64,000 nucleotides of DNA, taken from contig NZ_CAGY01000005.1 of assembly GCF_000308055.1 (NCBI RefSeq), positions 62,001 to 126,000 of the forward strand, in the 5' to 3' direction. Numbering within the stretch: position 1 is the stretch's first letter; each line of letters starts with the position of its first letter. The stretch is from Actinomyces sp. ph3 (GTDB taxonomy: Bacteria; Actinomycetota; Actinomycetes; Actinomycetales; Actinomycetaceae). A program made the translations under genes and the position numbers. Of this stretch, positions 17,752 through 41,229 are shown piece after piece. The notes under the pieces were generated by a model. That model ran no database searches, was not told where the DNA came from, and worked only from the letters and a program-made list of their open reading frames with translations.

Positions 17752-17768
17752 GCAGATTGGAGTAGGAA

Positions 17769-18080
17769 ATGAACGGTGGAGATTTTCGCGTAAGCCCGGA
17801 GCTGCTCCAGCAGGTCTCGGCTGATCTGCGCACGCAGGCAACCGATCTGCTCAGCCAGCTTGATCAGTTCAATAAGGACGTTGAAGCACGTAGCGCCACA
17901 TGGGAAGGTGCTGCGAAGGAATCCTACACCCAGAAGCATGGTGAGTGGACCGCTGGTATGCATCAGATGCAGCAGGCTCTTGATGCCTTCGCAGGTCTGG
18001 TTGATCAGCTTGCTGGCAACTACGTCGTGACCGATAACACGGGTGCGCGTACCTTCAATGGCCTGGCTACTGGCCGCTGA
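17769..18080 (+). CDS. WXG100-family T7SS protein, second of pair
   Basis: This 103-residue protein has WEG (ATWEGAAKESY, about residue 42) between two helices. It is the likely heterodimer partner of the WXG100 protein encoded 17 bases upstream. The C-terminal helix runs into a short tail with Val, Thr and Asn. Both genes probably share one promoter in the region 17252-17430. The pair sits beside the eccD, eccB and mycP genes, so these are the best candidates for the basic substrates of this system. Confidence 0.92.
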   Translation: MNGGDFRVSPELLQQVSADLRTQATDLLSQLDQFNKDVEARSATWEGAAKESYTQKHGEWTAGMHQMQQALDAFAGLVDQLAGNYVVTDNTGARTFNGLATGR

Positions 18081-19378: not shown

Positions 19379-19380
19379 AG

Positions 19381-21700: not shown

Positions 21701-23086
21701 TTATCGACTAACCGACAACTTCCGCTCGCCCAGCAGAAGCACCGTACCCAGCGATACCTTGACGCGTTCACCGCGGGGGAGTCGCTGCGTGGTGCCATCG
21801 GGGGCCTGCAACCGCGTGCCATTCGCCGAGAAGGTGTCCTCGACCCACATCGCATCGCCATCGGCTGGTGCGACACGCAAGTGCGTGCGCGACAGGGAAC
21901 GCGTGGAATCAGCAATTGCTACTGCCCGTGCATCAGAATGCGTCTGTTCGGGAGCGCGTCCCAACACGATGGGAGCATTGACTTCGATTCGCTGTCCGTC
22001 ATCAACGATGATCGCCAGTGGCGCTGCCTGCGCAAATGCGGGGACAGAAGCCGGTGCGCTCGTTGCGGGAGCGGCCTGAGGGGCCACTGGCTGCGTATGA
22101 GTCCGCTGACCAGCGTTCTGCGGAGCGCTGCCGGCCTGCTGAGGTGTGCCAGCCTGGGGCATTGGCACCTGCGGAACTCGTGGCATTGCAGAGGCTGTGC
22201 TGTGGCGCGGGGGAGTGGGAACCTTGGGCGCGGCCGGAGTCTGTGCAGCTTGCTGCGTAGGCATGGGCGCGGGCATCTCGCTGAGGACCTGGCTGGGAGC
22301 CTCGGGCATCGGTGATGGTGCTGGTAGGTCGCCTACAGGAACTCCCGCTGGCGGAACACTCAAAACAGCAGGCTCGGAAGCAGGAACTTCGGGGGACGCA
22401 ACGCGCGGCCCTGCCCACTGATGTGCCGGGGCAAGTGCGGCGGGATCCATTCCCTGAGGCTGTGCAGGTGCGGCCCCAACCCCAGCCGAGGCCTCGGCAA
22501 ACGAGGGGGAAAGCTGCTGGGAATAAGCGGGAGCGCCGGCGTCTGTGCGGCCAGCGCGGACGTCAAGGTTCCCCATCCCGCAGACGCGGTCAACCCAGGT
22601 TTGGCCATCTCGGGCAATAACCCAAGTGACGGCCGGTCCAACGACAGTCGCGTGCAAGAGCAGCATGATCAGGCTGTGCGCGCTCTGGCGAGCCAAGCCG
22701 GGGGCGTGACCGGCCTCGGGACCTGCATCGGTGGCTACGGGTGCCATTGAAATTGCGGCCACTTGCATGACGAAAGCGCCGGGAGTCCGTCCCGAATGGG
22801 CGCGAATCAGAGTGCCAACGATCCATGTCTCAAGCGCAACGATCACTGCAATGGCGATCGAGGGATAGAACCACCATGAAAGCGCGGTAATTGCGACAAG
22901 ACATGCAAGGTCAATGAGGTAGGCGGTAACCAGAGCGCCACCGTTCGCGGGCGCTGAATATGTCACCCTGGGCTGGGGGAGGCCTCGCTGGACACTACCT
23001 TGTTGAGCAACGGCCAGATGAGCCGGGTCCACACCTTTTGCCTGAGAAACGGGGACCTGGACTGGGGTAATGCGAAGCTCACTCAT
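21701..23086 (-). CDS. RDD-family membrane protein with C-terminal FHA domain
   Basis: This 461-residue protein starts with an RDD-like membrane domain (about 45-180; helices AYLIDLACLVAITALSW, then IAIAVIVALETWIVGTLI). A long Pro/Ala/Gln-rich linker follows (about 180-350), then an FHA domain (about 355-461) with the expected Gly-Arg (VLGRAP), Ser-x-x-His (SRTH) and Asn-Gly (SANGT) motifs. FHA domains bind phosphothreonine, so the kinase at 11290 is a plausible partner. Its ATG overlaps the stop of the EccD-like gene by four bases, so the two belong together. It ends convergently, two bases from the lipoprotein gene. Confidence 0.85.
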   Translation of the reverse strand: MSELRITPVQVPVSQAKGVDPAHLAVAQQGSVQRGLPQPRVTYSAPANGGALVTAYLIDLACLVAITALSWWFYPSIAIAVIVALETWIVGTLIRAHSGRTPGAFVMQVAAISMAPVATDAGPEAGHAPGLARQSAHSLIMLLLHATVVGPAVTWVIARDGQTWVDRVCGMGNLDVRAGRTDAGAPAYSQQLSPSFAEASAGVGAAPAQPQGMDPAALAPAHQWAGPRVASPEVPASEPAVLSVPPAGVPVGDLPAPSPMPEAPSQVLSEMPAPMPTQQAAQTPAAPKVPTPPRHSTASAMPRVPQVPMPQAGTPQQAGSAPQNAGQRTHTQPVAPQAAPATSAPASVPAFAQAAPLAIIVDDGQRIEVNAPIVLGRAPEQTHSDARAVAIADSTRSLSRTHLRVAPADGDAMWVEDTFSANGTRLQAPDGTTQRLPRGERVKVSLGTVLLLGERKLSVSR

Positions 23087-24474
23087 GATGCCACCTGTCG
23101 AACGAGTTCAAAAAGATCCGCGGCGAAGAACGCGGCAGGGAAAACAACAGTCAATGACAGTGCTTGGAAAATATCGGTAAAGCGCCCAATAAGTGCGGAT
23201 TGTTCTTTGCCTGAACGCAGGCGAGTCCACAGAAGAGAAACGCAACCGATGAAGACAAGAACAGCTGCTGCAATGGGAGTGCCAAGAAGGGCTCGGGAAG
23301 CGGGGGAAATGAGCAGCGTTGCAAGCAAAATGACCGCTCCCACGCGGGGAACAACTCGCGAGGAAGCCCAGCGGCGCTCGCGGGGAACAACGACCAGCGC
23401 AATGACTGATGCACATACCAGCACCAGCGAGGCGATCTGCTGCCACGAATGAATCCCGATCATTGAGTAGATCACGGGAACCGCAACAATGATCAGGCCC
23501 AGACCAAGGTATTGGACCAATCGAGTACGTGAGGTCGCATCAGTGACGGTGCGGTTGACGCGGCGGCCGGTAATGCGCGAAGGAGAGGGAACCTCGGGTG
23601 CGCGGACAGTGGGCGCGGAGGTCGTCACTAGCGGCATATCCAGCAGCTGGGTCGCGGGTATCCGTACTGACAAGCTGGGCGAGGCGGTGATTGCGCATAC
23701 CGCGCAGGCGATTGCGAAGGGCGCAACTCTGGTGAGGGAAGCATTGAGATAGGTCAAGACAGTCGCGCTTGCCGTGAGAACGCCCCAACTGAGCGCGTGT
23801 GCGCTTGTGAGGGGAGTGGGACGCCAGAGCCAGAGTCCAAGTGCAACGCCGGTTGCTCCCCACAGAGGGAAGAGAAGTGCGGCGACCTGCGACATCGTGG
23901 AGATTTGCGAGGCCTCAAGATAGATTCCTGCGCTTCCCAGAGCGGGGAGGATACCAAGGAAAGAGAGCCCCGCGCCGAGTGTCCATCCGGACAACAATCC
24001 GGCGTTGGAGTGGACGCGTTTTTGGTAGAGGACGACAAGGCAAAGAGCAAGTGAGAGGACACCGATTGTCAAAGGCGCCCACCACGGCACGCCCGCAATG
24101 ATGGTCAATAGCTGAGCGAAAAGAGTGCAGAAGATCAGGACCGCGTCCATTGCAAATGCCAGCAGGGCGCAGATGCTCAGAGCAAGGGAAGGGCGGAACC
24201 AGGGGTCGGAAGCTCGCTCAATTGCGCGTTGTTCTTGACGCTGGCGCTCGCGGCCAGAGGTAATGGAGATGAGGACTCCCTGGGGAAGGTCAGTCCCCAA
24301 GACCGCGCCAAGATTAAGAGGACGGCCGTCGGCACCGGTGATTTGCAGGCTTGGATCGCTTGAATCGATATCAAGCATGGAGAGTAGGCCAGTGACCGTT
24401 GTTCCCAGCGGAACAACCAAATCTTTGACGCCGGAAGCGTCGGTGACGGTTACCGCTGCCTGTTTCTGGGTCAC
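23083..24474 (-). CDS. Second EccD-like T7SS membrane protein
   Basis: The 463-residue product has a ubiquitin-like N-terminus of about 80 residues (VTVTDASGVKDLVVPLGTT), a charged linker (ERQRQEQRAIERASDPWF) and then some eleven membrane helices. This is the EccD layout, though similarity to the EccD encoded at 15941-17251 is low by eye. The GTG start has a strong GGAGGAGG site. The gene is divergent from eccC and coupled to the RDD/FHA gene. A role as the partner of the first EccD in a heteromeric membrane complex is possible. A distinct YukD-fused transporter cannot be excluded. Confidence 0.78.
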   Translation of the reverse strand: MTQKQAAVTVTDASGVKDLVVPLGTTVTGLLSMLDIDSSDPSLQITGADGRPLNLGAVLGTDLPQGVLISITSGRERQRQEQRAIERASDPWFRPSLALSICALLAFAMDAVLIFCTLFAQLLTIIAGVPWWAPLTIGVLSLALCLVVLYQKRVHSNAGLLSGWTLGAGLSFLGILPALGSAGIYLEASQISTMSQVAALLFPLWGATGVALGLWLWRPTPLTSAHALSWGVLTASATVLTYLNASLTRVAPFAIACAVCAITASPSLSVRIPATQLLDMPLVTTSAPTVRAPEVPSPSRITGRRVNRTVTDATSRTRLVQYLGLGLIIVAVPVIYSMIGIHSWQQIASLVLVCASVIALVVVPRERRWASSRVVPRVGAVILLATLLISPASRALLGTPIAAAVLVFIGCVSLLWTRLRSGKEQSALIGRFTDIFQALSLTVVFPAAFFAADLFELVRQVAS

Positions 24475-24679: not shown

Positions 24680-27600
24680 ATGGCCGTCAATGAAATGGAA
24701 GCCCCCGAGCTCCCCAGCGGTGAAATCGCTGTAGAAAAGCCACCCAGCCAGGTTGAAGCCGGCGGTATGGGTTCGATCCTTGCTACCGCGATCCCCATGA
24801 TGGGCTCCATGGGTGTCATGGTCATCATGGCGCTGACTCAGGGGCAGAACACGCGAATGCTTCTGATGGCGGGCGGCATGGTCTTCATGATGCTCTCCAT
24901 GGTTGGTTTCAACATCTACCGCCAGGTCTCGCAGTACCGTAACAAGGTCAACTCCCAGCGTCGCGAATACCTCTCCTACCTGTCAGAGACTCGAACCAGC
25001 GTGCGTAATATTGCCGCGAAGCAGCGAATCTTCATGCAGTGGTACCTGCCTGAGCCGGACTCGCTGGTGCTTTTAGCCGAAGAAGGCTCGCGCCTGTGGG
25101 AACGCGAAGTGGGCGACGATACTTCTGTCTCCACTCGAATCGGAACGTCTGACCAGGAACTGGCCATGCGCTTGGTCGAACCCGATATTCCCCAGATGGC
25201 GAACCCCGATGTCGTCTGCCATTCGGCGATGCGCCGTTTCTTAGATGTCCACAAGACCGTTGAAGACCTTCCTTTCAGCCTGGACTTGGGTCAGTTCTCT
25301 CATGTCGAGGTCGCCGGTGATGGCGAGCGCGCTCGCGGAGAAGTCCGCTCGATGATCTGCCACCTTGCGGTTATGACGCCAGATTCGGCCCTGAAGATCG
25401 CGGTATTGACGACTCCCGAAAACCTCCCGAACTGGGAGTGGATGAAGTGGCTGCCTCATATCCGTTCCGCAGAGGTCACTGACGCTCTGGGTGGTGCGCG
25501 TATGGTGTGCACCAGCTACGCCGAGCTCGAGGATCTCTTGGGTGAGGAAATGACGACCCGAGGCCACTTCCAGCCTCGAAATGACGCAAGCCCCTGGCCG
25601 CATTTGATCGTGATTACCGACGGTGCCGAGCTTCCTCCCGATTCGCACCTGGGCTCTATTGAGGGCTGCGCAGGCGTGACGATCATGAAGGTCCTGACCT
25701 CGTGGGGCATGTTCATGAACCCCACCGGTGTTCGTCTGCTTTTGCATCCCGCGAACGATGAGCACACCCCCATGGAAGTTCTGCTTCTTGAGGCAAAGCC
25801 AGTGCTCGCCAACGCCGACTACATGGGAATTCCTCAGGCCGAGGCCGTGGCCCGTCGCCTGACCCGCTTCCTGACCGCCGGTGGCAGGGATGCGGCAACC
25901 CCCGTCGGTAAGCCCGACCCCAAGCGTTCTCAAGACCTCATGGAATTGCTCAATATCGGCGATATTCGTGACTTCGATGCGGAACGGCAGTGGAAGCGCC
26001 GCAATGGCCGCGATCGTCTGCGCGTTCCCTTCGCTGTCACCCCCGAGGGTATTCCGGTTGTTTTGGACATTAAGGAAGCCGCCCAGCAGGGCATGGGCCC
26101 GCACGGCCTGCTGATCGGTGCGACCGGTTCCGGTAAGTCCGAGGTGCTGCGTACCTTGGTGCTTGCACTTGCGCTCACGCACTCTCCCGAGCAGCTGAAC
26201 TTCGTTCTGGTTGACTTCAAGGGTGGTGCGACCTTCGCCGGTATGTCAGACCTGCCTCACGTCTCTGCGATGATTTCAAACCTGGAGTCGGAGCTGTCTC
26301 TGGTTGACCGTATGGAAGATGCTCTTCATGGTGAAATGGTCCGTCGCCAAGAGATCCTGCGTGATGCCGGTAACTATGCAAATGTCACGGATTATGAAGC
26401 GGATCGTATAGCTGGGAAGCATGACTTCCCAGTCCTTCCGGCGCTCTTCATCATCCTTGACGAATTCTCTGAACTTCTGACCGCCAAGCCTGACTTTGGT
26501 GAGCTCTTCGTGGCAATTGGTCGTCTGGGCCGATCCTTGTCGATCCACATTCTTCTGTCCTCGCAGCGCTTGGAGTCCGGAAAGCTCAAGGGCTTGGATT
26601 CGCACCTGTCATACCGCATTGGTTTGAAGACCTTCTCGGCTTCGGAATCACGCGAGGTTCTGGGCGTGACGGACGCCTACGACCTTCCTCCCTACCCGGG
26701 CTCTGGTTTCCTCCAGCCGGGTACGGATCAGTTGATCCGCTTCCGCGCCTCCTACGTCGCAGCTCCGCCGCCGCCTCGTAGTGTGTTGCCCAGTTCGGGT
26801 TCCGAGGCCTCGCAGATCCGACTGCTTCCCTTCTCTTTGGGGGAGGTACTGGACAACACTCCCGAGGAAGAGGCAATTCCCGAGGGCGGCCTGGTTGCGC
26901 CCGGCGATGAGCGCTGGGAGGGGATGACCGAGATTGATATCGCGGTCGCGCGCATGAAGGGCAAGGGTATGCCTGCCCACCAGGTGTGGCTGCCTCCTTT
27001 GGATGTTCCCGACACCATGGATTCGCTCATGCCCGACTTGGCTGTGGATCCCGAACTCGGCCTCATCTCGCACGAATGGCGTGCGAAGGGACCGCTGCAC
27101 ATCCCCATGGGTATCGTCGACCTTCCGCACGAACAGCGGCGCGAGGTTTTGGAATACGACTTCGCCGGTGCTGGCGGTCACATGTCGATCTTGGGCGGCC
27201 CGCTCTCCGGTAAGTCCACGGCATTGCGCTCGATTGTCATGGCTCTGTCGCTGACCCATACGCCGAAGGAAGTCCAGTTCTTCGTTATCGATTTCTCGGG
27301 TACTTTTGCCGCTTTCGAGGGTGCCGCTCACGTCGCGGGTGTTGCCTCTCGAGAGGATGAGGACATCTTGAACCGTATGGTGTCCGAAATTGAAGGCATC
27401 ATTGAGGACCGAGCTGCTTACTTCCGTGCGAACCGTATCGACTCCATGGCGACCTATCGCCGAGGCCGCGCTCAGGGACGCTTTGACGATGGCTATGGCG
27501 ATATCTTCCTTGTCGTCGACGGCTGGGGAACATTGCGAAGTGATTTCTCGGACGCAGAAGACCGTATCCGTCTGATGGCCGAACGCGCGCTGTCTTTTGG

Positions 27601-28657
27601 TGTTCACTTCATTGCCACGGCACTGCGCAAGATGGACTTCCGTATCCAGATGCAGGACATCTTCGGCTCCCGCATGGAGCTACGTATGGGTGATCCTTCG
27701 GATTCTGAGTTCCGTCGCGAGATCGGTAGCAAGGTCCCCGAGGGACGTCCGGGACGTGGTTTGTCTATGACCGGTCACCACATGCTGGTTGCCCTCCCGC
27801 GTGCTGATGGTGATCATGATCCGGCCACGATCGGTGAGGGTGTCGAAAAGACGCTTGCGCGCATTGCTTCTGCGACCGAACCCGGCCCGCGTCTGCGTTT
27901 GCTCCCAGAGAAGATCACCGTTTCCCAGATCGAGGCAACTCACGGCAAGCAGCAGAAGATTGTTCTTGGTTTGGAAGAACGCCGCTTGAGCCCGTGGACT
28001 TTCGATCCGGAAAACGAATCGCACATGTATGTCTACGGTGACGCGAAGTGTGGAAAGACCGCGTTCTTGCGCAACTTGGGCAACCAGGTGCTGGCAAAGC
28101 CAGGTTCGCGTCGCGCCATGCTGGTTGTCGTCGACGTGCGACGCTCCCTGCTGGGCGAGTGGGATGAATCGGAAATGCCGATGTACATCACCAACCGTGA
28201 TGAAATCCAGGGAAGCATGGAGGCAGTTGCCGAACAGCTGCGTATGCGTCTTCCGGGACCGGACGTGACGCCCGAGCAGTTGCGTAAGCGCAATTGGTGG
28301 AAGGGAGCCGAGGCCTGGGTTTTGGTTGACGACTACGACCTGATTTCCACCGGTGGTCTGAGTGGCTCACCTTTGGCTCCGCTTCAGCCTCTGTTGTCGC
28401 AGGCGCAAGACATCGGTTTCCACTTGGTGATTACTCGCCGTATGGGTGGGGCTTCGCGTGCGTCCTACGAGCAGATTTTGCAGTCCCTATCCGAGTTGTC
28501 GGCAACCGGCATCATGATGTCGGGTAATCCTTCCGAGGGCATGGTTATTGGCCGCGAGCGTCCGCGCATTCTTCCCAAGGGTCGAGGCTTGGTTGTCTCG
28601 CGTGATCAAGGAACCTTCTTGGCGCAGATGGCGTGGTCCGAGTCGCGGGTTAAGTAG
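24680..28657 (+). CDS. eccC: Type VII secretion ATPase EccC (FtsK/SpoIIIE family, three ATPase domains)
   Basis: EccC is the motor of ESX secretion. This 1325-residue protein is the single-chain form (EccCa plus EccCb fused). Two membrane helices lie at about 32-80. Three FtsK-like ATPase domains follow with P-loops GATGSGKS (480-487), GGPLSGKS (839-846) and GDAKCGKT (1120-1127). Domain 1 has Walker B-like FVLVDFKGG and a following ILDEFSE. All three P-loops are intact. The ATG at 24680 has CAGGAG at good spacing. The gene is transcribed away from the second EccD-like gene and lies directly upstream of the three substrate-like cassettes. Confidence 0.96.
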   Translation: MAVNEMEAPELPSGEIAVEKPPSQVEAGGMGSILATAIPMMGSMGVMVIMALTQGQNTRMLLMAGGMVFMMLSMVGFNIYRQVSQYRNKVNSQRREYLSYLSETRTSVRNIAAKQRIFMQWYLPEPDSLVLLAEEGSRLWEREVGDDTSVSTRIGTSDQELAMRLVEPDIPQMANPDVVCHSAMRRFLDVHKTVEDLPFSLDLGQFSHVEVAGDGERARGEVRSMICHLAVMTPDSALKIAVLTTPENLPNWEWMKWLPHIRSAEVTDALGGARMVCTSYAELEDLLGEEMTTRGHFQPRNDASPWPHLIVITDGAELPPDSHLGSIEGCAGVTIMKVLTSWGMFMNPTGVRLLLHPANDEHTPMEVLLLEAKPVLANADYMGIPQAEAVARRLTRFLTAGGRDAATPVGKPDPKRSQDLMELLNIGDIRDFDAERQWKRRNGRDRLRVPFAVTPEGIPVVLDIKEAAQQGMGPHGLLIGATGSGKSEVLRTLVLALALTHSPEQLNFVLVDFKGGATFAGMSDLPHVSAMISNLESELSLVDRMEDALHGEMVRRQEILRDAGNYANVTDYEADRIAGKHDFPVLPALFIILDEFSELLTAKPDFGELFVAIGRLGRSLSIHILLSSQRLESGKLKGLDSHLSYRIGLKTFSASESREVLGVTDAYDLPPYPGSGFLQPGTDQLIRFRASYVAAPPPPRSVLPSSGSEASQIRLLPFSLGEVLDNTPEEEAIPEGGLVAPGDERWEGMTEIDIAVARMKGKGMPAHQVWLPPLDVPDTMDSLMPDLAVDPELGLISHEWRAKGPLHIPMGIVDLPHEQRREVLEYDFAGAGGHMSILGGPLSGKSTALRSIVMALSLTHTPKEVQFFVIDFSGTFAAFEGAAHVAGVASREDEDILNRMVSEIEGIIEDRAAYFRANRIDSMATYRRGRAQGRFDDGYGDIFLVVDGWGTLRSDFSDAEDRIRLMAERALSFGVHFIATALRKMDFRIQMQDIFGSRMELRMGDPSDSEFRREIGSKVPEGRPGRGLSMTGHHMLVALPRADGDHDPATIGEGVEKTLARIASATEPGPRLRLLPEKITVSQIEATHGKQQKIVLGLEERRLSPWTFDPENESHMYVYGDAKCGKTAFLRNLGNQVLAKPGSRRAMLVVVDVRRSLLGEWDESEMPMYITNRDEIQGSMEAVAEQLRMRLPGPDVTPEQLRKRNWWKGAEAWVLVDDYDLISTGGLSGSPLAPLQPLLSQAQDIGFHLVITRRMGGASRASYEQILQSLSELSATGIMMSGNPSEGMVIGRERPRILPKGRGLVVSRDQGTFLAQMAWSESRVK

Positions 28658-28819: not shown

Positions 28820-29158
28820 GTGGCAGATAAGATCAGTTTCGACCGAGAAGCGGTTGGAGTTGTTGCGAAAGCTCAGTGGCAGGATGCTGAGTCTCTCGGG
28901 CGAATTGGTGCGTCAACGAAACGCATCTCAGCCGACCAAGTTGCGGAGCCTCTTCCTGGTCCCGGAGGTCCTGGCCCGCAGGCGTTGAAATCTGCAGTGA
29001 AGGCCTTTAACGAGGCGATGTCAATGGTCATCTACGAGTATTCAGATGCCGCATCGAACTTGGGATCGGCGACAGCTGGTGCGTCGGCAAACTTCGATGA
29101 GACTGAGTCCTACAACCGTGAACGTGCAGCTCAACTGGGAGTGGAGTGGAATAAATGA
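28820..29158 (+). CDS. Small T7SS-linked WxDAE protein, cassette 1
   Basis: This 112-residue helical protein belongs to a local three-member family (also 32234 and 35554). All three share Trp-x-Asp-Ala-Glu in the first helix (QWQDAESL here), a Pro/Gly-rich turn in the middle, and a second helix with a Ser-Asp-Ala block (EYSDAASNLGSAT). This member shares the C-terminal Tyr-Asn-Arg-Glu-Arg and LGVEWNK with the cassette 2 member. There is no WXG in the turn, but size and two-helix layout are those of WXG100 partners. The GTG start has GGAAAG upstream. The stop overlaps the next start as ATGA, so the pair is made together. Inferred role: dimer partner or chaperone for the large protein. Confidence 0.8.
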   Translation: MADKISFDREAVGVVAKAQWQDAESLGRIGASTKRISADQVAEPLPGPGGPGPQALKSAVKAFNEAMSMVIYEYSDAASNLGSATAGASANFDETESYNRERAAQLGVEWNK

Positions 29159-31958
29159 GTGCTGACCTTCGACCTGGCGCGGAGGCTCTTGAGTCGCCCA
29201 AGCCTGTTACTGGAGCATCCGAAGTTGCTTCGCATTGGAAAGCTATCGGTTCGGCAATCGGTCAAACACAGGCAGCTCAGCATTCCTCGGTTCCTGCTGA
29301 ATCTTGGACGGGAGCAGCAGCGGATGCGGCATCTGCTGAAATTCAAGCACTCGGCGGGAAGCTTTCGGGTCTATCAGGACAATTTGCTACTCCTGCAAGT
29401 GCACTCACCACCTGGGAAGCGCGCAATAGCCAGGGGATCAAAACCGTCGAGGGCCTGCAAACGCAGTGGGATGATGCGATTGCTGCCTACAAGAAGACAA
29501 TATCCGAAATCAATGCCCGAGCCGCGACGGATAAGGAATATAACCCGGCTTCGGATCTCCAAGCTGCCGAGAGTACCTTGGCTTCTGCTCAGGCTCCGCT
29601 GAAAAAGTCTTATGATGACGAGATTCATCAGCTGAGCGATGCTGCAAATACGGCTGCCACAGAAATTCAGAAGACTTCAAATGATACGATCCCTGCCGAT
29701 GTGGTGAAGGGTGGTCGCGCTGCGGTTGGTGCTGAACTTTTTGGTAAGGATATGCCTATCGCTGATGGTGCTGCTGAATGGGACTATGCTCGCACGAAGG
29801 CTCCCCAACTACGTGATGATCTTGAGAAGGCTGCGAATTCTGATAAGCCTTTGACCGAAGCGGAGGTCAAGAAACTTCAGGAAAAATGGGGCGATAAACT
29901 GCAGAATCCTTACTGGGTCCAAGCCCTAGCTGACTCCTACCGCGATAAGCATGGAAAAGATGCCAACTTTTCCGACATGCTAAATAGGCTGACTGTGAAT
30001 GCGGCTGGGTCATCAAACCTTCCTGCTGGTGAGGGTGAGACTCGAAATTCCTTTGTCAACAGTATTGGTAATGCCATGGTGCTCGCAACGGGCGGGTCAG
30101 ATGCTAGCAAAGATGGGATCGCCACGAGTGCCGAATATGCTCAGGTAAAGGCTGGATTGCGTGGTCATGACGGCAAGACGACAATTGAGCAGATTGAGCA
30201 TGCCAATATTGAGTCGTTTAAATCAACGGGGGATAAGGTATACGACCGCCAACGGGGCGATTCAAGCTTGGATGGTTATCAGATTTTCACCCAAGCGACC
30301 GGCTTTGCAGGGGTGAAGAATCCGGACTTGACTTTCGGGAAGGGAGTATACGAAGGTGGTGCAGATTCCTTAGCCGGAAAGATCGTTGAGTACGATCAGA
30401 AGCACCCGAGTATGAACGCAATGAATCCAGGCGCGGGAGTTGATCTTGCATCGATCGTGCATTCGACGGATGCTGATGATAAGGCTTGGAAGCTATCTCA
30501 TGATCCGCTTCAGTCGCTTTTCCAGCTTTCTGACACTCCCGAAAGGATTGCAGACGGAAGTGCTCCTTCCGCGCTGCAGAACGCTGAGGGAACGCGCCTT
30601 ATGCACCTGAGGGATTTCTTGAATTCAAACACCTCATTTGATGTGGATCTGCCTGAGGGGCGTGAAGACGGGAAGATTACTTTTGCGCGTTATCTAGCCG
30701 GAAATCGCCATGCAGATGATGTTGATCTACTGGGGAATATTGATGGTGGTGAGGCGCTTGGCGATATGTTAAATGACGCGTCTAACCCGAAGACAGCTGA
30801 TGTTCCTGAGCCTCCCGCGAGTGATAAGACGGCTCATAAGATTTGGGAGAATGATCGGCTTACGCGCGCGGCGATTGCTGCGAATACTATGGCTGGCTAT
30901 CAGGATGGTCTTGATTACTCGCATTCAGCAATACTTAGTGATCCGGATCATATTAAGGGTGAAGACGTCTTCGGCCATAAGAATTGGGCTCTGCGTTCGT
31001 GGATGGGATCTATTATTTCGCCGTATGTTGATGACTTAGCTTCCGAAATGCATAACAGCACCGGTGAAGGTAGCATGGAGGCATCTTCAGCCCCAGGCGA
31101 GGGGCATTCTGGTCACATGCAGTTCGGGCGCGATATTGTGACACGCTTCAAGCAAGAAGGCGGGCTGTTACAAGACCTTGCATTTGACCAGCCTGAGCTG
31201 GAAAGTGACGGTGGAACCAAGAAGAACCTCTTGGACGATACGTACAAGAGGGGCCGTATGCCTGCGCTCCAAGCGGTTCAAGTTGCTGCCTACACTGGAT
31301 ATATGGGTGATGTCTACGACGGGCTACAAAATCCTGATTATCATGTTCGCATGCAAAAGATTCAGGGCGCTAATAGCCGCTGGACGGAACTTATCATGAG
31401 ACTTTCGACGCGAATGCGGACCAGAGTACCGCGATTGGTAAGGCGCTTGACGCGTCCAATAGGAGGGCACGTCAAATTGTTGATTTTATTGTCGACAAGG
31501 GAACGGACTATGCAGCCAGTCAAGTGCCCGCTGGTGGGGCGCTTGCTGAAAAGGCAGCGCAAGCTGCAGCGGGGAAGGCCCTTGATCACTTTTTCCCGAC
31601 GGATAACGAGCTTAAGGGCTGGCAATCTCATTCGAAGATGGAAGCTAAATCGCATGATCTTATGCAAAATGGCTTAATTCGCGCGATGTATGATTCGGAT
31701 CATTGGACGGAAAATGCGGGAACGGTTGACGTTTCGCCAGGTACTCAGGCCTTCGCTGATAAGGACCTCCCGTTTGTTAATTCTGATGGTACGCGCGATT
31801 CTTATGATTCTCTTTCGAAAGTGCAAAGAGATTCTGTGCGCCAGTACTTTAGAGGGAAGAACAGTGATTTTCGGCCCTTGCTCGATGGTCAATATGACGC
31901 CCAGCAGAATGCGCAGAACGATGGTCGTGCGGAAAAACCATCGGGTGGCGGTAACTGA
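29155..31958 (+). pseudogene. Large T7SS substrate-like protein, cassette 1, interrupted by a frameshift
   Basis: The first frame runs 29155-31677 but loses similarity to its paralogues near 31395. A second frame, open from 31377, continues the family to 31958 (DFIVDKGTDYAAS, then LDHFFPTDNELKG). The span is 2804 bases, one short of a multiple of three. Restoring one base gives 934 residues, against 940 and 929 for the paralogues, so a one-base deletion between 31377 and about 31400 is the simplest reading. The N-terminus has a WXG-like motif (SWTGAAADAA, Trp51). Family blocks include LKKSYDDEIHQL, YQIFTQATG and AGYQDGLD. It may be a true pseudogene or a sequencing error. Function unknown; possibly a member of a large actinobacterial T7SS-linked family. 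Confidence 0.78.
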
Positions 31959-31994
31959 TGCTGTAGTCAACTTCGGTTAATCGGCGCTTTAAGG

Positions 31995-32031
31995 GGTGCT
32001 GCCTGCGGTTTTTCGCAGGCAGCACCTTTTT
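31995..32031 (+). terminator. Rho-independent terminator after cassette 1
   Basis: A perfect 13-bp stem (GGTGCTGCCTGCG / CGCAGGCAGCACC) with a six-base loop GTTTTT is followed by five T. It lies 37 bases after the end of cassette 1. Confidence 0.93.
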
Positions 32032-32140
32032 CTTGCCACAAATGTTCTAGCTGACTAATGTCCAACGTTTCTTCTCTGACAATCGAGTGATGAAAGTATT
32101 GTCGAGGTTTGGTGCACTGAAATTTCAGCAAACTTAATGG

Positions 32141-32169
32141 TTGAAACGGTAAATTTTCATTCGTAAATT
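32141..32169 (+). promoter_or_regulatory. Promoter-like sequence of cassette 2
   Basis: TTGAAA, 17-base spacer starting CGGTAAA, then TAAATT. It aligns with the regions ahead of cassettes 1 and 3 and lies just downstream of the cassette 1 terminator, so cassette 2 probably has its own transcript. Confidence 0.55.
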
Positions 32170-32233
32170 CGCAGGCCACAGAGGTGCTGACCGAAATCTT
32201 GTTGCCTCGCTGATGTACTGAAATGAGAAGTTT

Positions 32234-32578
32234 GTGGGAGAAAAAGTAGCAATTACCTTCGACTACGAAGCGGCGGGCATTCAAATGCAAGAAAACTGGA
32301 AGGATGCTGAGTCGCTTGGGCAGATCGGAGCCGCAATCGGGCGTATTTCGTCGGCTGGATCGGCTTATCCTCTTCCGAGTACTGATAGTCAAGGCCCATC
32401 TAAATTGATATCAGCGATTGATGCCTTTGATAAAGCAATGGCGTGGGTTGTTCTTGAGTGTTCAGATGCTGCAGCCAACCTTGGTTCTGGACTTGAAAAG
32501 GTGGCGCAGAACTTTGATAGTACCGAGCACTATAACCGTGAACGTGCGCTGAAACTTGGAGTGGAGTGGAATAAATGA
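32234..32578 (+). CDS. Small T7SS-linked WxDAE protein, cassette 2
   Basis: The 114-residue protein is the closest relative of the 28820 product: NWKDAESLGQIGAA, CSDAAANLGSG and an almost identical C-terminus (YNRERALKLGVEWNK). It forms two helices around a Pro/Ser turn. The GTG start follows GAGAAG. The stop overlaps the next start as ATGA, the same coupling as in cassette 1. The identical C-terminal LGVEWNK in two copies may be an interaction or export signal; this is inferred from conservation only. Confidence 0.8.
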   Translation: MGEKVAITFDYEAAGIQMQENWKDAESLGQIGAAIGRISSAGSAYPLPSTDSQGPSKLISAIDAFDKAMAWVVLECSDAAANLGSGLEKVAQNFDSTEHYNRERALKLGVEWNK

Positions 32579-35397
32579 GCATTAGTCTTAGGCCTGGGTC
32601 TGAAGCACTGGAGTTGCCAAAGTCTGTTTCTCACGCATCTGAAATTTCTTCTCATTGGAACGCGATCGGATCAGCCCTAACTCAGACTCAAGTTGTTCAG
32701 AATGGTAGTGGTGCCATCACTTCATTGGAAGGTGCAACTGCGGACGCTGTCAAAGTAGAGGTCGGGAAGCTTGGAGAGAAGATATCTGACCTCGCCACTG
32801 TTTTCCCGGGTCCAGCAAAAACCCTCACAGAATGGGAAGGCAAAGTAAATGAGGCAGTTCAGGTTGTAACTGGGCTGCAGCAGCGGTGGGATGAGGCGAT
32901 TGCTAACTACAATAAGGCAATGGGGGATATCGCCGCTCGCAGAGCAACTGACGACAACTTTACGGGGCAGGTCGAAGAGAAGAACGCTAGGGCGATACTT
33001 GACGGCGCACAGCGTCAACTTAAAAAATCCTATGACGACCAACTTCACCAGTTAAACGATGCCGCAAGTCAGGCTGCAGATGCGATTAGGGCTGCGGCTG
33101 ACAGTAAAATTTCTCCCGATGCTGTGAAACGTGGGCGTAATGCTGTTGGCGCGGAGTTTTTTGGCCCTGAGATGCCCTTGGTTAGTGGTGCCGAGCGATG
33201 GGCTTATGCGCAGGCAGAAGTACCGCGGATGGCGGCTGATTTTGAGGAAGCAGCGAACTCCAATCGGCCTCTTAATGAAGAAGAAGTTAAGGCCTTGATG
33301 GGTAAATGGGGAGATAAACTGAACGACCCCTTTTTTGTCCAAGCATTAGCAGAATACTGGCGCAGTAAGCATGGTGGTAAGGGCGATTACTCTGACCTGC
33401 TGAATAGACTGGCAATCAAAAGTGCAAGAGCCGGCATTGTGCCCGAAGGTGAGGTAACAACTCGAAATGCATTCATCAGCCGCATTGGTACTGCAATGGT
33501 ACTTTCCACAGGTGGTGTCAATGCAGATCAAGATCACTTAGCAGATTCAGCGGTATACGAAAAGGTGAAGAATTATCTTCGTGGCACTGATGGAAGAACG
33601 ACGATCGCTGAAACTGAGCAGGCAAATATTGAGTCTTTTAAAGAGACGGGCGATCGAGACTATGCATTCGGCGCGCCCTCTAGCAGGCTGAAAGGTTTTC
33701 AGATCTTTACTCAAGCGACTGCGCTTGCTGCGGTTAATAATCCAGATCTGGCGTTTGGTAAGGGGGTGTATGAGGGCGAAGCTACTTCGCTTGCAGCCAA
33801 AATTGTTGACTTTGACCATACGACCACGAGTTATGAAAATGTAAATAATGATGGCACTAACTCAATCGTTCAATTCACAGGAATGAACCCGGTTGCTTCT
33901 GCAAGTGCTCATGATCCACTGCAATCACTGTATTTGTTATCTGATACACCAGATAGCATGCAGACTCCCGACTTCGTCTCGAAGTATCATGAGCTTGCGA
34001 GAGCTGAACAAGGGCGTTTAGATGCGCTTCGGGGATTTCTAATGCAAGACACGTCGTTTGACGTTGAGAACGACTGGGATCGTAACGGAGAGAAATCCTC
34101 GGAGAAGATTCCGATGACTCGTTATCTGACGGGGAATCGCAACCATGGTCTCTTCCCCCCAAGAGGCTTTGTTGACGCTGGTGACGCGTTCGGATCCATG
34201 ATTGAGGATGCAACCCGTCCTTTGGGCGATGCTGAGAAGAGTATTTTAGGGGACAACTGGAAGGGAGCTTCTAATCAACAGGCGCGTATTGTCGGTAACT
34301 TCACTGCAGGGTATCAAGATGGCCTTGACCACGATGGTGACAAGATTGGTTCGCAAGACGCGTTTGGTGCTACGAATTCGAAGTTGCGTTCGCACGCTGG
34401 TGTGATCCTAGCGAACTGGGTTGAGAGTCTGGCGCAGATGGATACGGACGACGCCGGAGATACTGTAAAGAGCGCGCATGATGCTGTTGATGAAGGTTCC
34501 ATAAGCGCGACGACCGGGCAGGCGCAATTTGTGCTCTCTCCTAAGCTGCGTGATGCGTTATACGGTAAGGAAGGGCTCTTTGCTGATCTTGCCTTCGATA
34601 ATCCGATGCAGGTGAGTGGGCAAAATACTCCAAATAATCCATTTGACGATACTTTTGAAGGCGGCCGTCCCCCTGCTCTTAGCACTATTCAAGCGGCTGC
34701 TTATGCGGGGTATAAGCATGATCTGACTCAGGCTATGGCTTCCGAGTATCGCGTTGATCCAACCAAAACAACGGAAAGCGCTGAGTGGAGTTCAGCTGTT
34801 AATAGTGGAGTCAAGAAATGGGGCGGGCTCTTTGAACATATTGAATCTGCAGTTTCAGATCAGGAAGTCGCTGAGCATAGGGCTATCGCGGATAGAAATA
34901 AGCTAATCAGGAAGGGGATTGACGTAGTAGCGAGTACGGTTCCTTTTAGTCAAGTGCCTGGTCCAAAGATTCTGGAGTCTTTGGTTTCGGCAGTGACGAA
35001 TGATGGTAAAAATGCGGTATTGGATTCCATTCTTCCTACCGATTTTAATCGAGAGGAATTTTTAAAAAGGCTTGGCCGGGAATATGCGGCGACTCAGGCA
35101 GTCTCGGATACTCTCGCGAGCACCTATGTGGATCTTGATGAATGGCCTAATTCGCACGGAACGCCTAAACAGGAGCTAGTGGCTGAATTCTTGAGAAAAG
35201 AGGAAGAAGGGCACTACTCTAAGCCTGTTAAAGCGGATGAGCATGGAGGTTTACCTCCATATAACGAGATGACTGATGCGCAGCAGGGCCGTTTGAGGGA
35301 ATTTCTGAAAGAGCGAACTTATTTGAAAACGCCGCTTGAGACAGCAAAGGATACCACTTGGGCTGCTTTCTCAAAGCAAGAGGTGTATCGTCACTGA
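32575..35397 (+). CDS. Large T7SS substrate-like protein, cassette 2 (intact)
   Basis: The 940-residue protein has no signal peptide. The N-terminal 160 residues are helical like an LXG/WXG substrate domain, but the Trp of the WXG motif is replaced (SLEGATADA, Leu51). Family blocks follow: LKKSYDDQLHQLNDAA (about 145), WGDKLNDPFF, FQIFTQATALAAV (about 385), TSFDVENDW, RYLTGN, AGYQDGLDHDG (about 580) and FGATNSKLRSH. The C-terminal 200 residues are helical with a Gly/Val/Pro-containing stretch (RKGIDVVASTVPFSQVPG). The gene is AT-richer than the eccC gene. No catalytic motif was recognised. It may belong to the family annotated as DUF6571 in other actinobacteria; that name is uncertain. Confidence 0.82.
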   Translation: MSISLRPGSEALELPKSVSHASEISSHWNAIGSALTQTQVVQNGSGAITSLEGATADAVKVEVGKLGEKISDLATVFPGPAKTLTEWEGKVNEAVQVVTGLQQRWDEAIANYNKAMGDIAARRATDDNFTGQVEEKNARAILDGAQRQLKKSYDDQLHQLNDAASQAADAIRAAADSKISPDAVKRGRNAVGAEFFGPEMPLVSGAERWAYAQAEVPRMAADFEEAANSNRPLNEEEVKALMGKWGDKLNDPFFVQALAEYWRSKHGGKGDYSDLLNRLAIKSARAGIVPEGEVTTRNAFISRIGTAMVLSTGGVNADQDHLADSAVYEKVKNYLRGTDGRTTIAETEQANIESFKETGDRDYAFGAPSSRLKGFQIFTQATALAAVNNPDLAFGKGVYEGEATSLAAKIVDFDHTTTSYENVNNDGTNSIVQFTGMNPVASASAHDPLQSLYLLSDTPDSMQTPDFVSKYHELARAEQGRLDALRGFLMQDTSFDVENDWDRNGEKSSEKIPMTRYLTGNRNHGLFPPRGFVDAGDAFGSMIEDATRPLGDAEKSILGDNWKGASNQQARIVGNFTAGYQDGLDHDGDKIGSQDAFGATNSKLRSHAGVILANWVESLAQMDTDDAGDTVKSAHDAVDEGSISATTGQAQFVLSPKLRDALYGKEGLFADLAFDNPMQVSGQNTPNNPFDDTFEGGRPPALSTIQAAAYAGYKHDLTQAMASEYRVDPTKTTESAEWSSAVNSGVKKWGGLFEHIESAVSDQEVAEHRAIADRNKLIRKGIDVVASTVPFSQVPGPKILESLVSAVTNDGKNAVLDSILPTDFNREEFLKRLGREYAATQAVSDTLASTYVDLDEWPNSHGTPKQELVAEFLRKEEEGHYSKPVKADEHGGLPPYNEMTDAQQGRLREFLKERTYLKTPLETAKDTTWAAFSKQEVYRH

Positions 35398-35436
35398 TCG
35401 CTCACGTGTTTTGCGCATCGACTATTTCAATAAGGT

Positions 35437-35463
35437 GGGTTGCCTGCAGGCAACCCCCTTTTT
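35437..35463 (+). terminator. Rho-independent terminator after cassette 2
   Basis: An 8-bp GC-rich stem (GGGTTGCC / GGCAACCC) with a TGCA loop is followed by CC and five T. It lies 40 bases past the stop of cassette 2. Confidence 0.9.
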
Positions 35464-35476
35464 GTATCTGTTAAGC

Positions 35477-35505
35477 TTGAAATGTTACAGTTTCTACGGT
35501 TATAC
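35477..35505 (+). promoter_or_regulatory. Promoter-like sequence of cassette 3
   Basis: TTGAAA, 17-base spacer starting TGTTACA, then TTATAC. It matches the pattern ahead of cassettes 1 and 2 and follows immediately after the cassette 2 terminator. Confidence 0.55.
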
Positions 35506-35553
35506 GGTCGACGGTGATCCGCGCTGCGCGTGTCCGAACGTTGAGAGGTTCAA

Positions 35554-35901
35554 ATGGCGAATATTAGCTTCGATCGCTATGCATTAGGTATTGCGATGAA
35601 AGATCAATGGACTGATGCGGAGGACCTCGCTCAGGTTGGTGTTGCGGTTACAAAACTTGGGGACTATCGCGTAGCGGAAGACTTCCCTCAAGGAGATTGT
35701 TCAGGTGTGGTTGCGTTGAGAAATGCAATGACGAATTTTGCGACCTACTTGGGGTGGGCGACTCAAGAATATTCTGATGCCTGCGCGCTGTTGGGTTCCG
35801 GTATGTCGGAGTATTCGCAAAATGCGGATAGTACCGAGCAGTATAACGAAGCAAAGACACGGGCTGCCGCTGCGCGTCTGGGTGTTGGAGAGGAACTCTG
35901 A
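35554..35901 (+). CDS. Small T7SS-linked WxDAE protein, cassette 3
   Basis: This 115-residue third member of the small-protein family has QWTDAEDLAQVGVAV, EYSDACALLGSG and a more diverged C-terminus (ARLGVGEEL) that lacks the VEWNK ending of the other two. The ATG has GAGAGG upstream. Its stop lies one base before the ATG of the large partner, so coupling is kept but without the four-base overlap. The divergence of both members of this cassette together suggests that partner and large protein co-evolve. Confidence 0.78.
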   Translation: MANISFDRYALGIAMKDQWTDAEDLAQVGVAVTKLGDYRVAEDFPQGDCSGVVALRNAMTNFATYLGWATQEYSDACALLGSGMSEYSQNADSTEQYNEAKTRAAAARLGVGEEL

Positions 35902-35902
35902 G

Positions 35903-38692
35903 ATGGCGGTTGATCTTAAAAGCAGTGGTGCGGAAGCCCTTCCGCAGATCCCTGGCTCAGTGGACGTGGACGCAACTGCGGCGGGGACTGAGGCTGAACG
36001 CTTGGGTACGGCAATCGGGAATACCCAGGTCGCGAAAAATAAGGACGCCGTCCCAGAGGAATGGACGGGTGCAGCTGCAGATGCTGCTTCGACGGAGATT
36101 CAAGCCCTTGGGGTGAAGGTTAAAACACTGTCTGAGGCGTTTCCTACCGCTGGGAAAGCTCTCAAAGACTGGGACTATCAGTTGAGGGGGATCCGAGGGA
36201 AAATTTCTCTCCTCCAGCACTCTTGGGATACCTATTTGTCTGAATATAACGCGGCAGTTGCGGATGCAGGGCAGCAAGAGGTTAATGACCCAACGATTGA
36301 TAAAGAGAGTCTGATTACCAAGGCGCGTTCAACTTTGCGTACGCATCAGGAGACGTTGCGAGGAAAATATGATGGGCATATCTCATTCCTCAATGAGACG
36401 GCTCAAAGTACTGCGAATACCATTGACGAAGCCCGCAGGAACATTGTTTCTGATGAGGCTGGTTCCAGGGGGCGGAGTGGTGTTGGTGCCGCGCTTTTTG
36501 GTTCAGATACTCCCATTCTGAGTGGCGCTATGCAATGGGCCGATGCACAAGAAAAAGCGCCTTGGATTGCGGCGGCATTAAAGACAGAGCCGATGACGCC
36601 GGAAAAGGTTAAGGAGATTAACGAAAAGTACGGCCAGTACCTGTCGAATCCCTTCTACGCTAATGCTATTGCTCAATACATGACTGTAGATGAATTGAAT
36701 AATGCTGCACTTCGAATTCGAATGACCGCATATGACAACCACGGTCTCTTTGCTAACAGCGACTTTGAGGATCTAAACAAGAACCTCGGTACACTGATGG
36801 TTTTAGCAACGGGTGGAAGTAATCTTTCTGATGAAATGCTAGGTTCTCAAAAGTCTTTTGATCTGGTATCAGATGTCTTGATTGGGAAAGACGGACAGCA
36901 TATTGCTGACATTCAGAATACGAAGCTCCAAGAGCTACAAGAAACGGGACGGAAGACTTATTCGATCCCTGCAGGACCTGGAGGCCGTAATGTTGGGCCG
37001 TTGGAAGGGTATTCAATATTTACTCAGTTGGCTGGAGTAGCTGCGCGAGAAAATGCCTCTTTGGCCCTTGGTGCAGCTTTTTATGCGCCGCCGAGCGGTA
37101 AATCTGTCTTCGCCGATATCCTTGAATGGGATCATGAAAAGGCTGGGAATGGATACCCGCCCGGGGAAACATATCAGCTATGCGGTTTGGACAAGGAAAC
37201 TAGAGCGCATCCATGGACGGCTACGAATGAGCAACTCCTTGACCCAGTTCAAACTTTGCTTAACCTGTCCGATACACCGGATTATCTGGAGACCTCTGGG
37301 GATGCAGAGCTTTGGAAAGCGGAAAATGAACGTCTCGGCGCACTACGTAAGGTTTTAGATTCAGACACCTCATTTGATGTTACGACTTACGATGTTCACA
37401 ACGGTGAGAAGTTGTCGAACTCGGGCAAAATGAGCATCGCGAGGTACTTGACGGGCTCGCGTCCTAATTCTTGGTCGTTAGACTTCGGATATCTCGATGG
37501 TGGTGACGCGCTCGGCGAGGTGATGAACGACGCATCAAAGCATGACTCCGGTGCTGCTCCGATGGTCCCGCCTAGTTCAAGTGACTACCCATTGGGCGTC
37601 GAAGACCCAGACTACAAGAAAGCCGAAGCCGCATATAACGCCTGGAGAGACGACGATAAAAGACGTGCGAGAATTGCGCAAGGCTTTTTGCTTGGCTACC
37701 AAGACGGATTAGATCAGAACGATAAAGTTACTGACCAGGGCGAAGACATATTCGGTCATAATAATTCGGGTATGCGCTCATGGGTTGCAGAAGTTGCTGC
37801 TTCGCGGGCTGATGATCTGGCGAAGATTTTGGATACTGCAGGGACAGGTCTTGCGGACGGTAGTAATAACCGTGGCGATGGAGGCTATGCACAGATGAAT
37901 ATGACCAAGCAAGAGGTGCAAGAATTAGTTGCAAAGAATGGCTTGTTTAGTGATATTGCGCGTGACTCATCTGCGTTGACAAGGCTTCGTGAGGCAGCAT
38001 GGACAGGTTACGAGTACACGGCGCAAGAGACTGTTCAGAATTCTAGCTTTGATACGAATTGGCAGAGTAACCTTCAAAGTAACCTAAGAGGGTGGGACCG
38101 TCTCATTGCAGGTCTTGATGCTGGAGAGGTTAACGCTGGTCTTGCCACTGCCGAGGAAGTGGCAGAGTACAATGAAAAGAAGCGGGCATTAGTTGACTAT
38201 GTGATCGGCAAGATTCCGACGGATAAAGTTCCGTTGGCTGATCTTCTTCAGAAAGGTACTGATGCGCTGATTAAAGATCCTCTGTACGAGAAGTTTTGGC
38301 CGACGGGAGTGCCTGAAGAGACTATCGCCCAACGCGTTGCGATAGAACAGAAGACTGAAACTAAGATTAATGACGCGGTGATCTCTGCCTTTATTGCGCG
38401 TGATAACTGGCCAAATGCCTCGGGGCTGACAAAGGACGAACTTATTTCCGATTTTCTCGAGACTAAGGGATTAGATTGCGGATTATCGCCCACTCAAGCT
38501 ATGCCCGACTTTGGTGCTATGACTGCTGAGCAACGAAGCGCACTCATCGGCTATCTCACGGGAAAAGTCGATGGCGATGATGACCGAAAGACTGATTTTG
38601 GCCATGTGGTGACTGCTGTGGATGGTAACCTAGACGAGGCTAAAGCATGGGTTAAAGACTGTAACAGTGAGGTTAACGAACCCCTTAAATAG
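35903..38692 (+). CDS. Large T7SS substrate-like protein, cassette 3 (intact)
   Basis: The 929-residue protein starts at the ATG 35903 (GAGAGGAA upstream). The open frame extends 165 bases further 5', but that stretch overlaps the small partner gene and has no homology. The N-terminal helical domain has an intact WXG-like motif (EEWTGAAADAA, Trp54). Family blocks are YSIFTQLAG, TSFDVTTYD, RYLTGSRP, LGYQDGLDQND and FGHNNSGMRSW. It ends in helices (LVDYVIGKIPTDKVPLADLL). No signal peptide or known catalytic motif. It is the most diverged of the three large proteins. Confidence 0.82.
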   Translation: MAVDLKSSGAEALPQIPGSVDVDATAAGTEAERLGTAIGNTQVAKNKDAVPEEWTGAAADAASTEIQALGVKVKTLSEAFPTAGKALKDWDYQLRGIRGKISLLQHSWDTYLSEYNAAVADAGQQEVNDPTIDKESLITKARSTLRTHQETLRGKYDGHISFLNETAQSTANTIDEARRNIVSDEAGSRGRSGVGAALFGSDTPILSGAMQWADAQEKAPWIAAALKTEPMTPEKVKEINEKYGQYLSNPFYANAIAQYMTVDELNNAALRIRMTAYDNHGLFANSDFEDLNKNLGTLMVLATGGSNLSDEMLGSQKSFDLVSDVLIGKDGQHIADIQNTKLQELQETGRKTYSIPAGPGGRNVGPLEGYSIFTQLAGVAARENASLALGAAFYAPPSGKSVFADILEWDHEKAGNGYPPGETYQLCGLDKETRAHPWTATNEQLLDPVQTLLNLSDTPDYLETSGDAELWKAENERLGALRKVLDSDTSFDVTTYDVHNGEKLSNSGKMSIARYLTGSRPNSWSLDFGYLDGGDALGEVMNDASKHDSGAAPMVPPSSSDYPLGVEDPDYKKAEAAYNAWRDDDKRRARIAQGFLLGYQDGLDQNDKVTDQGEDIFGHNNSGMRSWVAEVAASRADDLAKILDTAGTGLADGSNNRGDGGYAQMNMTKQEVQELVAKNGLFSDIARDSSALTRLREAAWTGYEYTAQETVQNSSFDTNWQSNLQSNLRGWDRLIAGLDAGEVNAGLATAEEVAEYNEKKRALVDYVIGKIPTDKVPLADLLQKGTDALIKDPLYEKFWPTGVPEETIAQRVAIEQKTETKINDAVISAFIARDNWPNASGLTKDELISDFLETKGLDCGLSPTQAMPDFGAMTAEQRSALIGYLTGKVDGDDDRKTDFGHVVTAVDGNLDEAKAWVKDCNSEVNEPLK

Positions 38693-41169: not shown

Positions 41170-41229
41170 AAGAGGTCTTTCTTCAATCCTAGGTATTACT
41201 GAGAAGCGTCTCGATATTCGATGTCGCTA

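What the first reader, a model, noticed from the sequence alone, without database searches (positions are those of the whole stretch)
28820..38692. Three tandem two-gene T7SS cassettes: small WxDAE protein plus ~930-residue WXG-headed protein
Seen: three repeats of the same layout. Small helical proteins of 112-115 residues share WxDAE and a Ser-Asp-Ala block. Each is coupled to a large protein (934 restored, 940, 929 residues) with LKKSYDD-, YQIFTQ-, TSFDV- and AGYQDGLD-type blocks. Two of three large proteins keep the WTG motif; the second has Leu in place of Trp. Known: T7SS substrates often pair a small helical partner with a large helical-headed protein. Inferred: these are secreted, dimer-dependent substrates of the EccC encoded directly upstream. 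The family has no recognised function or toxin domain, so it may be an undescribed effector or surface system.
Basis: partly seen in the sequence, partly recalled or inferred. Interest (0 to 1): 0.75.

Follow-up and report, generated by a model that had tools for sequence, protein, structure and literature searches.

The report
Partner-guided T7SS effector cassettes, DUF6571-like
Three neighbouring gene pairs beside a type VII secretion machine each make a small guide protein and a large protein that is probably exported with it; the large proteins belong to a little-studied family that, in related bacteria, usually comes with a membrane lipoprotein that might be an antidote.

Summary
Three small/large pairs (112/broken, 114/940, 115/929 aa) lie at 28820-38692, directly downstream of eccC in a locus with eccB, eccD, mycosin and WXG100 genes. 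Copy 1's large gene is split between two frames; a close relative has one open 934-aa frame.

Most likely the pairs are T7SS substrates exported as heterodimers. In 26 selected pairs the large head keeps WxG (W 25, G 26) and the small ends in [F/Y]DxxE (F/Y 21, D and E 26), the halves of the known bipartite export signal. A small gene precedes 36 of 39 headed large genes and none of 7 headless or partial ones.

"No recognised family" is wrong in part: residues 201-650 are a remote DUF6571 relative (hhalign 98.8%; reversed control 0.2%), and an orthologue of copy 3 passes Pfam T7SS_signal.

Outside this clade, 17 of 23 loci carry a lipoprotein gene abutting the large gene, up to five in tandem, recalling LXG effector/immunity clusters. 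The window's clade has none.

I read it as an effector family (antagonism about 45%), a new variant of a known kind. No toxicity, complex or secretion was shown.

The parts
28820..29158 (+). small partner, copy 1 (112 aa); carries FDETE near its end
29155..31677 (+). large protein, copy 1, first frame (head, trunk, first part of tip); frame broken near its 3' part
31524..31958 (+). large protein, copy 1, remaining C-terminal part in another frame
   Evidence: row G000:C6:93395-93937; for the open frame in L004
32234..32578 (+). small partner, copy 2 (114 aa); FDSTE
32575..35397 (+). large protein, copy 2 (940 aa); LEG in place of WxG
35554..35901 (+). small partner, copy 3 (115 aa); ADSTE (Ala at the aromatic position)
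35903..38692 (+). large protein, copy 3 (929 aa), WTG intact
   Evidence: AlphaFold2 model pLDDT 79.4, pTM 0.71
35903..36502 (+). copy 3 head (residues 1-200): helical T7SS signal-type domain; WTG (54-56) lies just before the long helix 57-128
   Evidence: (orthologue L005 28.8 bits, cut-off 27)
36503..37852 (+). copy 3 trunk (residues 201-650): remote DUF6571 relative, mostly helical
37853..38692 (+). copy 3 tip (residues 651-929): mostly helical, no relative found, least conserved part
24680..28657 (+). EccC ATPase of the T7SS (EccCa 845 bits, EccCb 744 bits)
13318..17251 (-). mycosin-type S8 protease, EccB, EccD
17431..18080 (+). two WXG100 proteins
21701..24474 (-). FHA-like protein (17.4 bits, below the cut-off of 20.7) and second EccD-like protein (37.1 bits, cut-off 30)

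Best explanation
Each cassette encodes a T7SS substrate and its dedicated export partner. The small helical protein pairs with the WxG-bearing head (residues 1-200) of the large protein; WxG on one chain and [F/Y]DxxE near the end of the other make the composite signal, which the neighbouring EccC machine recognises. The exported part is a long, mostly helical body: a DUF6571-type trunk (201-650) and a faster-evolving tip (651-929). In the family at large the body acts outside the membrane, most likely on the envelope of competing bacteria, and the lipoprotein encoded next to it shields the producer. The window's clade lacks that lipoprotein. Shown: gene order, motifs, homology, co-occurrence, the exchange of the head for a lipoprotein signal. 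Inferred: pairing, export, antagonism, immunity.
For: Location downstream of eccC in a locus with eccB, eccD, mycosin and WXG100 genes. Large vs EccCa: 20 of 24 against 61 of 213, Fisher 4e-9; all 20 genomes with the small have the large. A small lies within 500 nt upstream of 36 of 39 headed large places and of 0 of 7 whose match starts past profile position 45. Motifs in 26 selected pairs: W 25, G 26; F/Y 21, D 26, E 26, and no other column above 4 of 26 for [FY]xxx[DE]. Distances of small and head correlate at r 0.81 (0 of 2000 permutations as high); small and body 0.72, head and body 0.76. Three headless bodies in G174 bear a lipobox; the two put in the tree group with a secreted large protein of their own genome, 100/99. 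Trunk vs DUF6571: prob 98.8, E 7e-17, reversed control 0.2. One of 10 DUF6571-type proteins scanned, L058, ends in a nuclease domain over its cut-off. A lipoprotein abuts the large gene in 17 of 23 loci outside the clade, up to five tandem copies, and two genomes (G007, G035) have it without a large gene nearby.
Confidence: 0.5

Rival explanations
1. Surface scaffold: the large proteins are exported by the T7SS with their partner but are not toxins; they build or decorate the cell surface, and the lipoprotein of the relatives is a docking anchor, not an antidote.
For: The body is long, mostly helical and solenoid-like with no enzyme fold found. In G174 (contig C10) the slot behind the large gene holds three lipoprotein-anchored bodies, 73-76% alike, and G036 has a body with a hydrophobic N-terminus in place of the head. 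Residues conserved in 17 other members are nearly all kept in the lipoprotein-free clade.
Against: Tandem lipoprotein arrays and lipoprotein genes without a large gene nearby in G007 and G035 look like immunity repertoires; large genes are split or interrupted in several genomes (window copy 1, G079, G178, G153), unlike a core surface part.
Confidence: 0.33
2. Host- or non-kin-directed effector: the window's clade uses the same export route but its targets do not exist in the producer, so no lipoprotein is kept.
For: The clade without the lipoprotein is one branch (100/99); none of 10 cassettes in window, L004, L005 and L006 has it, nor the whole window genome at E up to 0.01; conserved body residues are retained.
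Against: Absence of one family does not exclude another antidote; no host-interaction evidence; the tree is unrooted, so loss rather than primitive absence is inferred.
Confidence: 0.12
3. PE/PPE-like pair of mycobacterial type (EspG-dependent, surface or outer-membrane role).
For: Small partner plus WxG head; weak EspB_PPE match of copy 1 (17.1 bits, cut-off 27.7).
Against: No PE or PPE family match over a cut-off among the members scanned; no EspG found, though that search had no positive control.
Confidence: 0.03

Closest known systems
LXG effector clusters of T7SSb with Lap partners (TelC/TelD; PMC9600955, passages seen)
   Same: Small helical partner gene 5' of the effector; aromatic-xxx-acid motif on the partner and an x-x-G motif on the effector; in the relatives a further gene 3' of the effector.
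   Different: Actinobacterial EccC machine; one partner, not two; no LXG match; no recognised C-terminal toxin domain.
TslA/TilA lipase and its tandem immunity lipoproteins (PMC10730906, abstract and passages seen)
   Same: Effector next to lipoprotein genes in variable tandem number.
   Different: TslA has a reversed order and a lipase domain; the two lipoprotein families were not compared; the window's clade lacks the lipoprotein.
DUF6571 (PF20211) proteins of other Actinomycetota
   Same: Trunk homology over 318 (trunk alone) to 517 (whole protein) aligned columns; some have WxG-type heads.
   Different: No member of this family that I scanned reaches Pfam's DUF6571 cut-off; the tip (651-929) has no DUF6571 counterpart.
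Mycobacterial PE/PPE and Esx heterodimers (recalled, and as described in passages of PMC9600955)
   Same: Bipartite WxG plus YxxxD/E logic.
   Different: No sequence-family match over a cut-off.

Membership tests
T7SS substrate with T7SS_signal head (PF21725) | Pfam gathering score of 27 bits | tested here: inconclusive
   Met by one of 10 A3 members, the L005 orthologue of copy 3 (28.8 bits); below it in L006 (14.7) and L060 (17.4); the window's own proteins not listed at E up to 1
T7SS substrate with T7SS_signal head (PF21725) | genetic association with T7SS | tested here: met
   20 of 24 vs 61 of 213; next to eccC in the window
T7SS substrate with T7SS_signal head (PF21725) | secretion dependent on EccC | not testable with these tools
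   needs a deletion strain
DUF6571 (PF20211) | Pfam gathering score of 27 bits | tested here: not met
   no listing at E up to 1 for window proteins or the 10 A3 members
DUF6571 (PF20211) | homology of the trunk by profile-profile comparison | tested here: met
   prob 98.8, E 7.2e-17 for residues 201-650; reversed control 0.2; whole protein 99.3, reversed 1.1; with six DUF6571 rows only, 92.0 over 87 columns
LXG polymorphic toxin | LXG domain by Pfam | tested here: not met
   no LXG listing (at E up to 1, at 0.2)
LXG polymorphic toxin | exchangeable C-terminal toxin domain | tested here: not met
   tip alignable across the family though least conserved (24.7% at 651-800, 18.5% at 801-929); no toxin family over a cut-off (one ptaRNA1_toxin listing at 12.7 bits, cut-off 27)
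LXG polymorphic toxin | partner (Lap-like) gene beside the effector | tested here: met
   36 of 39 headed large places
WXG100 / EsxA-EsxB | Pfam PF06013 over 27.3 bits in small or head | tested here: not met
   (best 15.3 bits)
PE/PPE pair | PE or PPE family match over a cut-off | tested here: not met
PE/PPE pair | EspG chaperone in the genome | tested here: inconclusive
   no match, but no control rang either

The most novel reading that the evidence does not exclude
An actinobacterial EccC-type T7SS serves interbacterial antagonism with a three-part cassette (guide, helical DUF6571-type effector, lipoprotein antidote) parallel to LXG clusters. The effector body has in at least one genome been recast as membrane lipoproteins by exchanging its T7SS head for a lipoprotein signal, with loss of the guide. 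The window's clade lost the antidote and kept, and multiplied, the effector, implying a target that the producer does not have.
Probability: 0.25. Interest if true: 0.75.

Novelty: new variant of a known kind. Interest (0 to 1): 0.55.

Why it matters
The papers on T7SS antagonism that my searches listed are mostly on Bacillota; a passage of PMC11217815 does say that Rhs toxins have been linked with T7SSa. This family would give a testable case for antagonism by an actinobacterial EccC-type T7SS: guide, effector and candidate antidote in one gene cluster, and a clade without the antidote as a natural contrast. The headless, lipoprotein-anchored bodies show which part of the protein goes with T7SS export and with the guide.

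Tried and rejected

Considered and rejected: enzyme toxin (no fold or family found), mobile element (no viral-contig or plasmid relative), recent tandem duplication (the copies split deep in the tree).

Limits. The 26 pairs were chosen for having both genes and include near-copies of the window's own (L004). Outside them are headed large places without an adjacent small (G178:C22, G177 at 1275338, G140:C178) and the Arachnia loci L008 and L009; L008 has a small about 1.3 kb behind the large gene. Seven of 43 small places have no large place listed downstream: one (G079 at 150899) is followed by a split large gene, one is a piece of a split match, five are unresolved, as only four candidates a genome were scored for the large. 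A7 was built from lipoproteins of 11 of the 23 loci counted; of the 12 not used, 7 have it abutting on the same strand. Several of the 23 come from one genome (four from G079, three from G151, two from G174, two from G090). Of five genomes with a lipoprotein match but no large match, G007 and G035 are clear, G080's ends at a contig end where the large gene could be missing, and G124 and G173 are partial or weak. In one search rows G177 and G111 were left out and the 17 others include two without the A7 neighbour. One row of the DUF6571 alignment (L058) was first found with our own profile. First-look caps make genome counts lower bounds.

Full report
The window (56.3% G+C) lies in an unnamed 1.86-Mb genome. 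Its closest named match is L004, 98.4% identical over 18.8 kb and labelled Trueperella pyogenes 331_TPYO, which the tree tool lists under Actinomycetaceae. Three small/large pairs follow eccC at 24680-28657, which passes both EccCa and EccCb cut-offs. The locus also holds mycosin-type S8 protease, EccB and EccD genes, two WXG100 proteins, and PP2C, FHA and protein kinase genes.

Copy 1 of the large gene is broken: 29155-31677 runs off frame near its end and the remaining C-terminal part is read at 31524-31958. In L004 the same gene is one open frame of 934 residues.

Distribution. In 213 genomes of the family, the large protein matched in 24, the small in 20 and EccCa over its cut-off in 61. 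All 20 genomes with the small have the large; 20 of the 24 with the large have EccCa over the cut-off (Fisher 4e-9). The other four are a genome with EccC in two contig pieces (G172), a 57% complete one (G140), a weak hit (G189) and one whose large gene is interrupted (G153, L076). In 394 genomes of the class, weak and mostly head matches appear in 7 of 393 others. Arachnia propionica contigs also carry the family.

The pair. Counted over the places, a small lies within 500 nt upstream of 36 of 39 large places that include the head, and of 0 of 7 whose match begins past profile position 45. Of these 7, G036 and two in G174 are headless, one in G090 has its head in another piece, and three (G128, G140, G189) are weak. 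The third headless body of G174 was seen only in the locus, and it too has no small. In 26 selected pairs the large head keeps W in 25 and G in 26, and the small ends in [F/Y]-D-x-x-E (F/Y 21, D 26, E 26); no other column of the small reaches more than 4 of 26 for [FY]xxx[DE]. In LXG clusters an FxxxD motif on Lap1 is needed for export and resembles the YxxxD/E arm of mycobacterial substrates (PMC9600955, passages). Distances of small and head correlate at r 0.81, small and body 0.72, head and body 0.76.

Headless bodies. Three, in G174, carry a lipobox and are 73-76% alike; one, in G036, has a hydrophobic N-terminus. The two of G174 that I put in the tree group with that genome's secreted large protein (100/99). 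Thus the small goes with the head and not with the body, and the body can be exported by either route (inference).

What the large protein is. AlphaFold2 on copy 3, with an alignment of 12 sequences, gave pLDDT 79.4 and pTM 0.71, mostly helix; WTG at 54-56 lies just before a helix of 72 residues. Pfam does not name the window's proteins, but the L005 orthologue of copy 3 passes PF21725 T7SS_signal (28.8 bits, cut-off 27). Profile comparison with 25 DUF6571-type proteins gave 99.3% and E 3e-20 over 517 columns, reversed control 1.1%; by parts, residues 201-650 gave 98.8%, the head alone 13.5% and residues 651-929 1.3%, reversed controls 2.2% or less. With only six DUF6571 rows the match was 92% over 87 columns. 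So the trunk is a remote DUF6571 relative, outside Pfam's cut-off. One of 10 DUF6571-type proteins scanned, L058, ends in an Endonuclea_NS_2 domain over its cut-off, so this trunk can carry a toxin. Here no toxin domain is recognised; the tip is mostly helical and least conserved (mean pairwise identity 18.5% at 801-929 against 35.1% at 451-650). No paper of the library holds the word DUF6571.

The third gene. Outside the window's clade, 17 of 23 loci have a lipoprotein of one family (A7) whose match starts within -10 to +39 nt of the large gene's stop (one of them, L068, a partial match at a contig end); one more at +526 behind a split large gene; two have it convergent; three have none. Of these three, one is followed by the lipoprotein-anchored bodies and one by another lipobox protein. 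There are up to five tandem copies (L081). The family matched in 19 of 213 genomes, 14 of them with the large protein; of the other five, two (G007, G035) clearly have it without a large gene nearby, one stops at a contig end and two are partial or weak. TilA and related immunity lipoproteins show such tandem variation (PMC10730906, passages). Against this, A7 was built from 11 of those loci, and function is untested.

The window's clade. Neither the window (3 cassettes) nor L004 (3), L005 (2) or L006 (2) has the lipoprotein, nor does the window genome at E up to 0.01. The seven distinct large proteins of this clade form one branch (100/99). Of positions conserved in at least 90% of 17 others, only two are lost in it, one of them a Tyr in the head. 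I therefore infer one change, probably loss, of the lipoprotein in this clade, with the direction resting on an unrooted tree.

Mechanism. Shown by sequence: pair, motifs, domain plan, T7SS link, joint absence of head and partner, lipoprotein neighbour. Inferred: heterodimer, EccC-dependent export, action at the envelope of other cells, protection by the lipoprotein. A non-toxic surface scaffold remains a serious rival because the body is solenoid-like (background-level Z) and exists in anchored form.

Novelty. Small WXG100-like partners and candidate immunity genes beside T7SS substrates are a known pattern (PMC11217815, passages). What my searches (listings only, open-licence papers only) did not show is this family and its actinobacterial three-gene cassette, its tie to DUF6571, the exchange of the T7SS head for a lipoprotein signal, and the clade without the lipoprotein.

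Noticed in passing
window 18884-21698: An Abhydrolase_8 protein (564 aa, weak WXG100-type match below its cut-off) is flanked by two DUF4853 paralogues, one with a lipobox: another effector/lipoprotein-like arrangement at the same T7SS locus.
   Followed up: partly
window 39265-41931 (-): A 634-aa and a 233-aa protein, without family match, form a second pair that recurs at the T7SS loci of L005 and L006 and, by similar N-termini only, of L059, L060 and L062.
   Followed up: partly
L081, L074, L076: Large genes are also split in G079 and G178, and interrupted by a transposase-like ORF (by eye, no family scan) in G153; with window copy 1, breakage recurs in this family.
   Followed up: no
L061:1-6310 (-): Three tandem lipobox proteins resemble the body of the neighbouring large protein without its head; the two put in the tree group with that protein (100/99).
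   Followed up: yes
L079 and L080: A7-type proteins without a large gene nearby lie behind tandem lipobox proteins that by eye resemble DUF4853 and small membrane proteins; L080 has a WxG-type 434-aa protein further on.
   Followed up: no
L007 (= L017, G172:C258): A 4,060-base contig labelled Propionibacterium sp. MAG appears to be the same contig as one filed in the window's own genus, so the label is probably wrong.
   Followed up: partly
L058: DUF6571 trunk with a C-terminal Endonuclea_NS_2 domain, both over Pfam cut-offs.
   Followed up: partly
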